Below are positions 22,959-36,279 of a stretch of DNA of 64,000 nt, in pieces. Numbering within the stretch: the stretch's first letter is position 1; each line of letters opens with the position of its first letter. The stretch is taken from contig NC_081543.1 of assembly GCF_901000735.1 (NCBI RefSeq), positions 19,758,079-19,822,078 on the forward strand, in the 5' to 3' direction. Below the pieces are notes generated by a model that did no database searches, was not told where the DNA came from, and was given only the letters and a program-made list of their open reading frames with translations. The translations under genes were made by a program, and so were the position numbers. This DNA is from Corylus avellana (lineage: Eukaryota > Streptophyta > Magnoliopsida > Fagales > Betulaceae).

Positions 22959-23371
22959 GATCTCTTTGCTCCTTGATGTACACCCTGCTCTCCTTTGAAC
23001 CCCCTGAGTATTGTCCTGCTCTTCTCCTCTTTGCTTACCCCCTGTTAACCTTTCTCTGTGTCGAGATCCTAGTTGTTGGTTGGTAGTCCACCACCCCGTC
23101 AGTGCAGTTTGCCTACCACCCCGTTACTACAGTTGTCGAGGTACCTGTAAGTCCCGCTTAAGCCTGGGTTTGGCGTCTAGGGCGTGAAGAAGAGACTGTG
23201 GAGAATAGCCAACGGTATGTGTAGCGCGTTTCGCGGCCAAGGGTATGTGTGGATAAACCTTACATCTAGGAAGGAGATCCTTAGGAAGTTTACCCAGTGA
23301 GTGAGTACCTAGGATGAGATCCTTTAAGACTTTATTGAGTGTGTGATTTTGAGTTTAGATTGTGTGTCAAA
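22959..23371 (+). other. Viral leader of unit A
   Basis: The leader is about 410 bases before the ORF1 ATG at 23,372. It contains an imperfect repeat (GGTATGTGTAGCGC / GGGTATGTGTGGATAAA) and matches the unit B leader 29,765-30,175 closely. Confidence 0.7.
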
Positions 23372-26300
23372 ATGTGGAGATCTAATTCTTCTGTCAGCTC
23401 TAATTCCAGTTTGCCACCGGACGTAGTTAACTATGAAAATTTCTCTGTTGAATCTGATAATAATTTATATGTTGATAACTGGAACATCCCTAAGCTGGAC
23501 GCTAAGGATGTTTACACTACTTCTTGGTTTAAATCTTCTTTTAAATCTCAATTTTCTGTCAAAATTGTCGAACAAACCTTTGCTATTGCCGGCAAAGATC
23601 AAACTATAACCCTGTTCAACAAGATGTTCATTAACGACTCTCTTGCTAAAGGTTATAAGTTTTTGCATGTTGGTTCTGTTCAAGTTGCTGTCAAGCCATT
23701 GACTCGACTTGGTATTAATGCTTCTTTTTTGTTTTGCTTGCGTGGCGCAAGATTTCTTGATTTTAAGACCAGTATACTCGGAATGATTCAATCCTCCTTG
23801 TTTGTTGGTCCTGTTCATTTTGATGTTTTTCCCAATCTTTCTGTTGCTTTGTCTGATATGCATATTTTGAAAGCTTTAATGCTTAATATTCTATCTTCTG
23901 GTTATAACATGGAAGAAGGTAGCAGACCCCTTGCTATCATCTATCGTGTTTATTATAAATTGATGAAGACAAATCTGGATCCACAAGTTGTGATCAAGAA
24001 TCCAGGTGAATCAACTTTGTTAATTCAAAGTTCTACTCAGAATGCAAAAATCAAAACTCCAAAAATGATTCGCTGGGAAGAGATTGACCTCCCCAACGAG
24101 TGGCTTTTGGAAGGTGTTCTCGAGTAGTAAACGATGCCTCTAGTCTTGATTACATCCAACTATATATGGATGGATCTGTCAAAATCAATTTTTCTGATTT
24201 AGGTCATTCCAGCAGGATTGAACGTCCTCAGTATGAAAAGCCTCTGTTGGTTAACGAACGAAGAAATTCTTTTGCGGGTTCAACAACCTCGGAAGGATTT
24301 CATCGTCGTGATAAAGATGTGGACGAGTCACTTAACGCTTCTCCTCCTCTTTGTCCGGTTAACCCTGATTTGAAACTCAAAGGAATTTCTACCGATTCCC
24401 AAGTTTCTTCTGCTTTTTATTCTACTAGAAATTATCCCCTAACGGATGACGAAGGTAGATCTACTTCTCCCTCTGCTTCTAATTTTGATGCTCCTCTTCC
24501 CACTGCTCCTCATTAGTGTAAAGTCATCACCTCTACCTCCCCAATCAAAGATTTCTTTTCTGTCATTGATTGGCCTTCTTTGTCAAAAGATTTTTTGTCA
24601 AAAGAAAATCGTGCTCTTCGGCATGCTTTTCAAAAGAAATATTCTTCCAAGGAACAAGATCTCATCAAGGTCAAATGGACTGAGATGATGATTGAATCCC
24701 ACAAACATATTTTGTTTTTTGATTATCTTCAAAAACATTTCCCTGTCGATAATGTTTTGAATGTTGTCAAAAAGAATTTTGTCAAAGAAGATAAATCCAT
24801 TGTCAAATCTTCTCATCCTCCTCTTGAAAATACTCTTCTTGATGTCAACAAAATGGTTGTCAAATGTTTCCCTTTCAAAACCCATGATAAGGACCCTATT
24901 AATAACGATAGGAGAATTATCGAACAAAACAATTTTTGTGCCCAATCTTTGCATATTTTAGGACAACAATTGGGTCGTATCGAAAAGAAACTTCCCTCTC
25001 TCTCTTCTGATTCAAAGGTTTCCTCTGATCCTCCAAAGATTGAAAAACCCCTGATTTCTCTCCCTGATTTGTCAAAATCTTCTGGTTTGAAAACGACTTC
25101 TCAAATGAACCTTGAGAAAGTCAACAAATTGCTTTCTGAATTAACTCATGCTCGTGCCAGTTCTTCTGGACAAAATTTTGTTATCAAAAAAGTTTCTTCT
25201 TCTGATTCTGAAACTTCTTCTCAAGAATCCACTGATTCTGACATCAGAATTCTTGAACAAAACTTTGGTAAGATTGAGATGGAGCCAAAACTCCAAAGGA
25301 TCTATGACGGATCTAAACCCTTCAATCTTACAAAGAATTTTTATTCTAAACCTACTCCTCCAGATTTACAATTCGAGGAAAGGTTTCACCAATCCCAATT
25401 CTCTGTGTCTGCTGATAAATTGTATGAATGGAATATTGACGGTTTGTCTGAGCAAGAACTGCTCAATAAGATGAATCATATGTCCATGGTTGCTAATGCT
25501 TATCTCACGAATCACAATAAAAGCCAAGCTGATATTGTGGATTTACTTGCTACTAGTTTTTCTGGTACTTTGAGAAATTGGTGGGATAATTATCTCACTG
25601 AAGATCAAAGAGATCAGATCAGGAAAGCAGTAAAGAGTGATGAAGAAGGATTACCTATTTTCGATGAGAAAATCAGAATGGGTGAACCTGATGGTGTTAA
25701 CTCCTTGATCTATACAATTATCAAACATTTTGTCGGAACTCCTTCCAATATCACCTCCCGTATTTCTGATTATCTGAACAATCTTCGATGCCCTACTATG
25801 TCTGACTATAGATGGTATCAAGATGTTTTTCTTTCCCGTGTCATGGTTAGACCTGATAGTCAAAAACCTTATTGGAAAGAAAAGTTCATTGATGGTTTTC
25901 CTTCATTATTTGTTCACAAAGTGAAAGATGAATTGATCAGTACTGACACTGGTCTCATCAATTTTGAAAATTTAACTTACGGTGATTTGTTTTCAACTGT
26001 CAAAAAACTTGGCATTAAGATGTGCATCGATCAAAAGATGATCAGATAGCAGCTTAAAAAGGCCAAGAAAGCTAAGTATGAAATGGGAAATTTCTGTGAA
26101 CAGTTTGGATTACCTCCTATGGCTCCCTCCAAAACGCATAGGAAGAAATCTAAAGCTCTCATAAGATCATCCCCTCCATATTACAATAGTAACAAGAGAA
26201 GAAAATTTAATAAACCTAAATTTTCTAAACCTCCTCCTAAACGGAGTAAACAATCTAAATTTGAAAAATATTTTTCAAAAAATAAATGTTTTAATTGCGG

Positions 26301-27567
26301 AGAAGAAGGACACTATGCTGACAAGTGCCCAAAACCTCCCAAAAAGATTAAAAAAGAGATTAATGCTTTAAACATCAATAACGATGATAAGCGAAAAATC
26401 TATAGAATTTTTCAAAACAATGCTTTTTCAAACTATTCTTCTGATAATGATCTTCTAGAATCCTCTGATTCTGAATATCGATCTGCCTCAGAAATATCTG
26501 AAAGTTGTTTTCAAATTGGTTGCACTGATGCCTGCTGCAATCCAAAAACCTGTTCTGTTTTAACGAAATCAGAAGAACAAGAAGACTTGCTCCTAACCCT
26601 GATTTCAAAAATTGAAAACCCTGATTTAAAAGAAGAGTATCTTAAAAAACTTAAGAAACTCATGACAAAAGATGTTGTTGAAAAACCTGTCGGCACTATA
26701 TCTCTTGAGGATACCTTAAAACGTTTTTCAAAACAAAAATCCAAGGTAGTTACTATCTTAGACTTTCAGCATGAGATTAGTACCATCAAGAAAGATATTG
26801 TCAACTTGCAAATTGCTTTGCAAAATGTCAATCATGAAAACAAAGATTTACAACAAAAGCTTTTGCTTTTAAATCTTAAACAAATTTTTCCTGGAAGTAT
26901 TTTTGATAACGAAATAACTTCTGAGCATGATGATGAAGAATCCTGTCATAAATCTTTGTCCAGTGAGATTAAGATTGTCAGTATGATCAGCAAATTTGTC
27001 CCTCCGAGATGGTATTCAAATGTCAAAATTACCATTTCTCCTGATTATTCTTTTGATGTTTTTGCTTTGATTGATTCTGATTTGAATTGCATTCAAGAAG
27101 GTTTCATTCCCAGCAAATATTTCCAAAAATCCACACAACGGTTGCACTCAGCCAGTGGTAGCAAATTGCACATTGATTTTGAATTGAAAAATGCATATGT
27201 CTGTTTTGATAATATTCATTTTCATATTCCTACTGTGCTTGTCAAAAACATGGGTGAAAGGGTAATTCTTGGTATGCCTTTTCTTGCTTTACTTTATCCA
27301 TTTTCTGTTAACGAAATTGATGTTTCAACTGTTAAATTTGATGTTAATATTCAAATACCTTTTGCGTCAAAATTTGAAATTGATGTTAATAGGTTGGATA
27401 TTAAGTTTAGGCAATCCTTAGATCTAGAAACGGATGAGGACCCTATTACCATCAGAGTTTTGTCTTGTCTAAACACCCCCCTAACGGTCGTGTTTACCCA
27501 GGATTCTTTGATCATACCTTTCCCTGTCATATGGCGCATATTATTATTTCTGTTTTACAAAGAATAA
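23372..27567 (+). pseudogene. Unit A ORF1: movement, coat, zinc knuckle, protease
   Basis: This is the viral polyprotein gene, starting at ATG 23,372 (MWRSNSS). The 30K-type movement protein spans about 23,400-24,110. After a Ser-rich linker the coat-protein core lies at about 25,380-26,150, followed by a basic stretch and a CCHC knuckle (CFNCGEEGHYADKC, 26,287-26,328), a coiled region, and an aspartic-protease-like domain (about 26,990-27,310). Breaks are a 10-base deletion at about 24,115 (frameshift) and TAG at 24,514 and 26,047, both at sites where related copies have CAG. The protease active site reads ALIDSDLNCI and lacks the Gly of the D-S/T-G motif. The frame then ends at 27,567 with no RT. 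Confidence 0.8.
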
Positions 27568-27653
27568 TTTTGACGTTATTCTGCATATATTTTATAAAGG
27601 TTTTTACCTTTTTGATTTTAATTATTTTCCTTTTGAATTTTTGCAGTGCCACC

Positions 27654-35659: not shown

Positions 35660-35835
35660 ACTGTTCACTTTTACTGTTCATTGTCCAGACGACACTGTAC
35701 AAAATTACTGTTCAGACGCACTGTTCAACTTCACTGTTCATGTTTTGTCTGCTGACACTACAGTGCCGACAACTACTGTTCAATCAGGCGAATTTCACTG
35801 TTCAAGATTGGCATCAAACATGCCTCTACTGTTCA
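35660..35835 (+). promoter_or_regulatory. ACTGTTCA repeat array, unit B
   Basis: Eight exact ACTGTTCA copies (35,660; 35,673; 35,707; 35,720; 35,733; 35,775; 35,797; 35,828) occur in 176 bases, 80-260 bases upstream of the TATA box. A TGACG core (as-1-like) follows at 35,849. Confidence 0.65.
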
Positions 35836-35914
35836 CATGTGACCGCTCTGACGCGGCGCCTGCTTTTACTGTTTTGTAATCAATTGTAATTTGTTTTATG
35901 CTTTATGCTCAGCC

Positions 35915-35921
35915 TATATAA
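35915..35921 (+). promoter_or_regulatory. Viral TATA box, unit B
   Basis: TATATAA in the same context as at 29,362. The transcript would start around 35,945 and read out into gypsy sequence. Confidence 0.65.
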
Positions 35922-36279
35922 CGGGCTCCCCTCCCCCTTTGTAAGGCAGTGGTTTTTCGAGAGGTTTTCTAGAGTCCTTCAGTACTCTCCCTCAAGAACT
36001 ATCTTGCCATTCCCCTGTCTTCTGTCTCTTACTTCAGTAAGCACTAACGCTTTCTTTTGTAAGCCTATCTTTAATCTGTAACGATTTTAAACTCTTTAAC
36101 GAGTTTTTATCCAGATTTGTTTATCTTATCTTCTGTCTTTTATATCTTTGATTATTAATTGTCATACCGCCTTCTTGGACGGTTCTATCTGCTTTAATTT
36201 TAATTATCATTATATGCACGTACATCCCTCTCCCCTACACCTTGCATCTATATGCATACTGCGCTTCCACCATCCCCAC

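What the first reader, a model, noticed from the sequence alone, without database searches (positions are those of the whole stretch)
22959..36279. Two-component endogenous pararetrovirus: coat protein and RT on separate units
Seen: unit A encodes movement protein, coat protein with zinc knuckle, protease and ORF2 but no RT/RNase H. Unit B encodes movement protein, protease, RT/RNase H and ORF2 but no coat protein. Each is about 6.5-6.8 kb with matching leader and promoter ends. In unit A the frame closes after the protease and ORF2 begins 87 bases on, which looks like an organised gene order and not a ragged deletion. Known (from memory): a bipartite genome has been proposed for some florendoviruses in the Caulimoviridae. 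Inference: these are the two components of such a virus, captured head to tail.
Basis: partly seen in the sequence, partly recalled or inferred. Interest (0 to 1): 0.92.

Follow-up and report, generated by a model that had tools for sequence, protein, structure and literature searches.

The report
Two-part fossil plant virus pair
A plant chromosome carries fossil copies of a DNA virus whose genes were split over two partner molecules, one with the coat protein and one with the copying enzyme; this kind of split virus has been reported before in other plants, and the copies here are a well-supported further case.

Summary
Unit A (22959-29738) encodes movement protein, coat protein with zinc knuckle, protease and ORF2, without RT/RNase H. 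Unit B (29739-36271) encodes movement protein, protease, RT/RNase H and ORF2, and lacks the coat core. Among host-genome copies read, 0 of 30 coat loci carry RT and 0 of 30 RT loci have the coat core upstream; 38 of 44 and 38 of 42 search rows span the two junctions. Proteases form two clades (72% identical between, 91-94% within); leaders of A and B intermix. CP, RT, both proteases and both ORF2s show purifying selection (dN/dS 0.08-0.26). So A and B multiplied as separate, recombining partners.

Its leader, seen in 2 of 6 places tried, is only 56-62% identical, so it does not explain A and B away, but a helper role is not excluded. Bipartite florendoviruses are known (Geering 2014; Chen 2017). 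Host unidentified. New member of a known kind.

The parts
22959..29738 (+). Unit A (CP component; = 'component B' of Geering 2014): leader (primer site and first ~22 bases missing), ORF1 with MP, CP, zinc knuckle and protease, then ORF2 and the 3' intergenic region. Bases 29719-29738 cannot be assigned to A or B
22959..23338 (+). Unit A leader, 95% identical to the unit B leader
23339..24127 (+). Unit A movement protein domain (Pfam MP), 96% DNA identity to B
24517..26049 (+). Unit A coat protein region: DUF7588, DUF7746, caulimovirus coat domain (the last just under its cut-off)
26083..27567 (+). Unit A end of CP with zinc knuckle, then protease; frame closes at 27565-27567
   Evidence: TAA at this place in 26 of 27 aligned copies, the first in-frame stop met in 15 of 27 (the rest have earlier damage, one a later stop, one none found)
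27385..27654 (+). Unit A junction where RT/RNase H is missing: after the protease about 250 bases without detectable similarity to B's RT-RNase H, then a 29-base island matching B's RNase H tail/ORF2 start
27654..28760 (+). Unit A ORF2 (stop at 27930 in this copy), homologous to B ORF2 (45% aa over 204)
28953..29718 (+). Unit A 3' intergenic region, 93.6% identical to B
29739..36271 (+). Unit B (RT component; = 'component A' of Geering 2014)
29739..29751 (+). Primer binding site-like TGGTATCAGAGCC (tRNA-Met; motif recalled). 19 of 22 leader pieces compared include the region, some with single-base differences; 3 (L081, L086 and unit A of the window) begin inside or after it
30143..31678 (+). 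Unit B movement protein and DUF7588 (N-terminal CP region)
32150..32250 (+). Unit B junction where coat core and zinc knuckle are missing
32250..32830 (+). Unit B protease
32850..34384 (+). Unit B reverse transcriptase and RNase H
34353..35450 (+). Unit B ORF2
35510..36271 (+). Unit B 3' intergenic region; similarity to unit A ends at 36271
18780..22958 (-). Minus-strand mosaic: leader, MP, leader start, protease end, RT, RNase H, short leader/MP pieces, coat core
10178..14029 (-). Second copy of that mosaic inside an 8.5-kb direct duplication (98.8%)

Best explanation
Fossil copies of a florendovirus-like pararetrovirus (Caulimoviridae) whose genome was divided over two DNAs. One (unit A) supplied coat protein, the other (unit B) reverse transcriptase/RNase H; each kept its own movement protein, protease, ORF2 and a shared regulatory leader. 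Inferred mechanism: in a co-infected cell B's RT copied the RNAs of both, A's coat protein packaged both, and recombination in the shared leader and intergenic region kept these alike. Viral DNA of both was then captured together during chromosome repair, giving A-B compound insertions such as this one. Shown: architecture, recurring junctions, leader shuffling, purifying selection, co-insertion. Inferred: exchange of proteins in trans, packaging, capture during repair.
For: Complementary domains. 26 of 30 coat loci read go through the full protease into ORF2 and 0 of 30 have RT; 22 of 30 RT loci keep the N-CP-to-protease junction and 0 of 30 have the coat core upstream on their strand (the 30s include one window copy of A and three of B). 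38 of 44 rows span A's junction and 38 of 42 span B's at about query length (7, 77). Protease: within A 93.9%, within B 91.4%, between 72.0% (68.9-75.3), and one change of label on the 51-row tree. Leaders: 6 changes of label on 22 rows against a shuffled mean of 7.6, 86 of 500 shuffles as low, and two well supported leader groups that each hold both components. dN/dS: CP 0.17, RT 0.10, protease A 0.25-0.26, protease B 0.08, ORF2 A 0.16, ORF2 B 0.13; wrong-frame controls, run for CP, RT, protease A and ORF2 A, 0.83-1.64. 6 of 82 clusters of hits hold coat and RT copies together. Leader 95%, 3' intergenic region 94% and MP 96% exceed the IGR >90% and MP >87% of Geering 2014 (PMC4241990, passages read).
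Against: An unsplit sister lineage lives in the same genome (24 pairs of hits) and could have been helper or parent. The searches score only about 40 candidates each, so divergent exceptions may be missed. 8 of 28 CP pieces and 7 of 30 RT pieces carry stops. No virion, transcript or exogenous genome was examined. In the N-CP tree 13 of 18 RT copies form their own clade, four lie between and only one nests among CP copies, so exchange is clearest in the leader. Protease B and ORF2 B had no wrong-frame control, and MP was not tested for selection.
Confidence: 0.76

Rival explanations
1. A and B are two independent defective satellites (or commensals) of an unsplit helper florendovirus; they resemble a bipartite pair only because each lost a different block.
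For: An unsplit lineage with coat core, zinc knuckle, protease, RT and the start of RNase H contiguous in the DNA exists in the same genome: three loci read, 24 pairs of hits. Protease DNA identities A-unsplit 71-74%, B-unsplit 75-77% and A-B 73%, and an unresolved protease tree, allow separate origins of A and B. Helper dependence was left open by Geering 2014 (passage read).
Against: The unsplit leader is only 56-62% identical to five A/B leaders, which are 80-97% alike among themselves; it was found in 2 of the 6 places fetched for it. Only 1 of 41 A/B-type leader hits lies within 5 kb of an unsplit coat row, on the opposite strand. A and B leaders intermix. CP in A and RT in B are both under purifying selection, which a satellite with a full helper should not need (inference).
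Confidence: 0.19
2. Deletions or rearrangements made after integration in the host chromosome, then copied around by duplication.
For: The window itself shows an 8.5-kb duplication and shuffled mosaics; two unsplit copies on C10 are identical over the two 1-kb queries.
Against: The same two junctions recur on 10 of 12 contigs for each component (hit lists), in copies 79-98% identical to those of the window, the proteases form two deep clades, and coding changes are strongly selected. Host flanks of the copies were not compared.
Confidence: 0.02
3. An assembly artefact or chance adjacency of unrelated repeats.
For: Region rich in repeats.
Against: 40 hits for each component at many loci, the same structures again and again, several compound loci with different joins.
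Confidence: 0.01

Closest known systems
Oryza sativa B virus (OsatBV) components A and B, Geering et al. 2014 (PMC4241990; abstract and passages seen)
   Same: Two 5.5-6.9-kb components; one with MP, CP, protease and an ORF2 homologue and no RT; one with MP, protease, RT/RNase H and ORF2 and no CP; near-identical intergenic region (>90%) and MP (>87%); compound insertions
   Different: Here ORF1 of the CP unit closes (stop codon kept in 26 of 27 copies) and ORF2 is a separate frame, whereas that paper describes a C-terminal extension of the polyprotein; copies here differ by up to about 20%, while it gives >99% to consensus for Oryza copies; the host is not shown to be Oryza
ePVCVL / ePVCVL2 pair of Chen et al. 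2017 (PMC5491270; abstract, two of three parts of the Results and the Discussion read)
   Same: Complementary RT-less and CP-less viruses, IGR and MP nearly identical, proteases very dissimilar, IGR trees intermixed; interpreted as possibly mutualistic partners with recombining IGRs
   Different: Their SFKTE motif was not seen in the part of the CP loci scanned here (limited reach); they found no autonomous partner for ePVCVL in Oryza, while here an unsplit sister lineage is present
Vitis vinifera B and D viruses (Geering 2014), with VvinAV as possible unsplit parent of VvinBV (review PMC10377300, passages read)
   Same: Bipartite components beside an unsplit relative in one host
   Different: RT of a Vitis protein (P0180) falls far from the window's RT (a long branch in the second), so probably a parallel event
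P0211 (unnamed JGI protein) and the unsplit lineage of this genome (L089-L091)
   Same: RT in the same clade as the window RT: P0211 in a 12-row clade, 100/97 (bootstrap not settled); P0211 and L089 in a 13-row clade, 99/97
   Different: P0211 has zinc knuckle, protease and RT in one frame; L089-L091 have coat, knuckle, protease and RT contiguous in the DNA, frames partly broken

Membership tests
Florendovirus (tentative genus, Caulimoviridae) | ORF1 order MP-CP(zinc finger)-protease-RT-RNase H, possibly divided between components | tested here: met
   the unsplit lineage in the same genome keeps the order coat-knuckle-protease-RT
Florendovirus (tentative genus, Caulimoviridae) | Second ORF with a protein of unknown function | tested here: met
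   ORF2 in both units; no Pfam family above its cut-off; 15 homologues of B's ORF2, the only one with a named host from the plant Lithocarpus
Florendovirus (tentative genus, Caulimoviridae) | tRNA-Met primer binding site at the start of the genome | tested here: met
   (motif itself recalled)
Florendovirus (tentative genus, Caulimoviridae) | RT phylogeny inside the florendovirus clade | tested here: inconclusive
   RT trees of 111 and 37 rows place it with unnamed JGI proteins and then plant proteins of Prunus, Quercus and others; no named reference florendovirus was in the trees
Bipartite florendovirus (sensu Geering 2014) | Complementary components, IGR >90% and MP >87% identical | tested here: met
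Bipartite florendovirus (sensu Geering 2014) | Many dispersed copies of both components and compound insertions | tested here: met
Bipartite florendovirus (sensu Geering 2014) | The two components replicate and are packaged only together | not testable with these tools
   inferred from selection and leader sharing only
OsatBV / ePVCVL as the same virus species | SFKTE motif in the CP component (Chen 2017) | tested here: inconclusive
   not seen in the 30 coat loci, but these end about 450 bases into ORF2; L034 and L035, and the window's own ORF2, read SFKSI at a comparable place
OsatBV / ePVCVL as the same virus species | Host is Oryza | not tested
   12 contigs and 370 Mb; plastid-gene searches meant to name the host did not complete

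The most novel reading that the evidence does not exclude
A stable, long-lived divided pararetrovirus living beside its own unsplit sister: A and B diverged far enough that each owns a component-specific protease (58% aa) and ORF2 (45% aa), all under purifying selection, while repeatedly swapping leaders within the pair and, as far as the two unsplit leaders seen show, not with the unsplit virus. Division would then be a lasting strategy and not a failed experiment.
Probability: 0.45. Interest if true: 0.62.

Novelty: new member of a known kind. Interest (0 to 1): 0.42.

Why it matters
Geering et al. 2014 state that no living member of the Caulimoviridae has a divided genome and call the fossil cases possible unsuccessful attempts (passages read). 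Here one genome preserves at least dozens of copies of both parts and of an unsplit sister, so selection on each part, exchange of leaders and separation from the unsplit lineage can be measured side by side.

Tried and rejected
Splicing of ORF2 (raised for florendoviruses in a review, PMC5902531, passages read): a CAG precedes the ORF2 ATG in 27 of 27 A copies and 22 of 24 B copies, and the leader has a GTAAGT in 18 of 22 pieces. Rejected as weakly supported: 138 of 415 leader hexamers are kept in as many copies, and the unsplit lineage has no GT at that place in the 2 leaders read.

Dead protease in unit A: the window copy lacks part of the active-site motif and the B copy has it altered, but D-S-G is read in 20 of 27 A copies and 22 of 26 B copies in which the motif region was found, so this is local damage.

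A and B proteases as sisters: 87/86 support in one tree, lost when the unsplit lineage was added. Not claimed.

Viral contig collection: CP and RT queries gave no confirmed relative. Host identification: not achieved.

Rows dropped: one search used the 30 loci delivered of 40 hits for each query (the 30s include window copies L009, L039, L040, L041); one search kept 51 of 60 protease pieces; one search kept 42 of 60 N-CP pieces; one search compared 27 of 30 coat loci; one search used 20 leader hits of the 41 main ones plus the two of the window; one search used 110 of the 120 listed of 614 RT hits, plus the window; 36 proteins plus the window.
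Full report
What is there. The window lies at 19.76-19.82 Mb of contig C3 of a 370-Mb, 12-contig genome. Self-comparison and domain scans show two units head to tail. Unit A (22959-29738) has leader, movement protein, coat protein with zinc knuckle, protease, ORF2 and 3' intergenic region. Unit B (29739-36271) has leader, movement protein, the N-terminal part of the coat region, protease, RT, RNase H, ORF2 and 3' intergenic region. 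Leader and MP are 95-96% identical between them, the protease 73%, ORF2 45% at protein level over 204 residues, the 3' intergenic region 94%. To the left lie minus-strand mosaics of the same two units inside an 8.5-kb direct duplication (98.8% identical), joined head to head with unit A at 22958/22959. Both ORF1s are broken by frame changes and stops.

Is the split fixed? DNA searches of the host genome returned 40 hits for the coat region and 40 for the RT region (the tool scores only about 40 candidates, so these are floors, and they include one and three places of the window). Of the 30 coat loci delivered, 29 run into the A-type protease, 26 of them to its end and on into A-type ORF2, and 0 carry RT. 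Of the 30 RT loci, 28 have the B-type protease adjacent, 24 have it complete at its 5' end, 22 also keep the N-CP-to-protease junction, and 0 have the coat core upstream on their strand; 4 hold a coat piece elsewhere in their 4 kb (L040 and L041, which are the window's mosaics, L045 downstream of RT, and 62 bases in L049). The searches that span the junctions agree: 38 of 44 rows for A and 38 of 42 for B, including rows at only 79-83% identity. Only 1 of 40 coat hits has an RT hit within 4.5 kb downstream on its strand, and there a leader lies between: a truncated A followed by B. The TAA that closes A's ORF1 is present in 26 of 27 aligned copies; it is the first in-frame stop met in 15 of 27, the others having earlier damage, one a later stop and one none in reach. 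So the closed frame looks like a property of the virus.

How A and B relate. Protease sequences fall into two clades: 93.9% within A, 91.4% within B, 72.0% (68.9-75.3) between, one change of label on a 51-row tree. The N-CP stretch is less clean: of 18 RT copies 13 form their own clade, four lie between, and one (L068) nests among CP copies. The leaders are intermixed: 6 changes of label on 22 rows, shuffled mean 7.6, 86 of 500 shuffles as low, and the two well supported leader groups hold 4 A with 6 B and 8 A with 4 B. Recombination between the two in the 5' regulatory region is the simplest reading, as Chen et al. argued for rice (PMC5491270; abstract, two of three parts of the Results and the Discussion read).

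Selection. Counting codon changes piece by piece among copies gave dN/dS 0.17 for CP, 0.10 for RT, 0.25-0.26 for protease A, 0.08 for protease B, 0.16 for ORF2 A and 0.13 for ORF2 B; protease A against B 0.30. Reading CP, RT, protease A and ORF2 A in the wrong frames gave 0.83-1.64; protease B and ORF2 B had no such control. So the coat gene was maintained on the molecule without RT, and RT on the molecule without a coat core, while they multiplied. 8 of 28 CP pieces and 7 of 30 RT pieces carry stops, as expected of fossils.

Trace of the ancestor. In A about 250 bases without detectable similarity to B's RT-RNase H follow the protease, then comes a 29-base island, 27 of 29 identical to the end of B's RNase H and the start of ORF2 (0 of 2000 shuffles as good; without the ORF2 start 6 of 2000). 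This suggests that A arose from a molecule with RNase H upstream of ORF2, with the end of the deletion in the RNase H tail, much as Geering et al. describe for other CP components (RT and the N-terminal part of RNase H missing); a conserved start signal for ORF2 is the other reading.

Result against the strict prediction. A protein search with a Solanum CP-PR-RT protein found a third lineage in the same genome. Three loci read (L089-L091) have coat region, zinc knuckle, protease and RT contiguous in the DNA. At protein level the first RT piece is 82-85% identical to B, the coat core 79-83% to A in the two loci with long matches. The frames are partly broken: in L089 a stop follows the coat core, then a stop-free frame of 740 residues runs through protease into RT and ends before RNase H, with the knuckle read in another frame. 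Pairing hits by position gives 24 pairs with coat followed by RT at 327-415 bases, mostly about 413 (44 coat rows and 42 RT rows). None of these rows overlaps the A or B lists. Its leader was found in 2 of 6 places fetched (L094, L097; not in L092, L093, L095, L096) and is 56-62% identical to five A/B leaders, which are 80-97% alike among themselves. Only 1 of 41 A/B-type leader hits lies within 5 kb of an unsplit coat row, on the opposite strand, at C2:21.66-21.67 Mb, next to an A-B compound. Protease DNA identities are A-unsplit 71-74, B-unsplit 75-77, A-B 73, and the protease tree with all three is unresolved; whether the pair split once, or A and B arose separately from unsplit viruses, is open.

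Co-insertion. 131 hits form 82 clusters (gaps under 12 kb): 32 with coat only, 37 with RT only, 7 with leader only, 6 with both, including this window. My own arithmetic (40 x 50 hits, 24 kb in 370 Mb) expects about 0.13 pairs by chance. The joins differ: A truncated in ORF2 then B at C2:21.66 Mb (L026), an RT copy truncated in RNase H then A at C6:26.74 Mb (L065), unit-length A to B in the window.

What it is. Gene content, ORF2, primer site and domain order fit the tentative genus Florendovirus. RT relatives named by the database come from Prunus, Quercus, Rhododendron, Vitis, Acer, Cucumis and others, and the closest (88%) is an unnamed JGI protein. No named reference florendovirus was in my trees, so genus membership rests on organisation. 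Bipartite florendoviruses were described by Geering et al. 2014 (PMC4241990, passages read) in grapevine, rice and sorghum, and also reported from beet according to a review (PMC10377300, passages read). Chen et al. read the rice pair as possibly mutualistic viruses. The present pair is the same kind. Differences: ORF2 of the CP unit is a separate frame; SFKTE was not seen in the limited part scanned; an unsplit sister is in the same genome. In the passages read and the listings of my paper searches I saw no such trio other than VvinAV with VvinBV; most of the listed papers were not opened.

Mechanism, with status. Shown: division, recurring junctions, leader sharing, selection, co-insertion. 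Inferred: RT of B copies both RNAs, coat protein of A packages both, recombination in the leader keeps signals matched, both DNAs are captured together in chromosome breaks. Not testable here: packaging and dependence. The main rival is dependence on the unsplit lineage as helper.

Noticed in passing
window 5547-14042 and 14143-22642: 8.5-kb direct duplication, 98.8% identical, carrying minus-strand mosaics of both virus units; its first copy has an ORF (8048-8827) with a below-cut-off match to a plant transposon protein (Transposase_32)
   Followed up: partly
window 1-5582 and 37064-41057: Related repeats of about 1.3 kb period on both sides of the virus array (about 90-96% identical), as if the array sat inside a satellite-like block
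   Followed up: no
window 58377-63543: LINE-like element: endonuclease and reverse transcriptase domains in decayed frames
   Followed up: no
L089-L091; G000 C10:8849900, C9:13389200, C1:13432100: Unsplit sister lineage with coat and RT regions contiguous, 24 pairs of hits; two copies 6 kb apart on C10 are identical over both 1-kb queries
   Followed up: yes
P0167, P0216, P0057 (Rhododendron molle): Annotated proteins with DUF7588-protease-RT-RNase H and no coat domain, and another with coat, knuckle and protease: a possible bipartite florendovirus in Rhododendron, unless gene models skipped the coat region as an intron. No held paper has both words Rhododendron and florendovirus
   Followed up: partly
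window 27635-27663 and 34334-34362: 29-base island at the ORF2 start shared by both units in otherwise unlike flanks (27 of 29 identical)
   Followed up: yes
L094 370-438, L095 263-285: (TA)n runs: in L094 about 170 bases before the primer-site-like start of an unsplit copy, in L095 where no leader was found; Geering 2014 reports an association with TA repeats (passages read)
   Followed up: no
window 2372-2700 and 47415-48640: Tandem arrays: a 31-base GC-rich unit with self-complementary ends, and units of 85 and 96 bases
   Followed up: no
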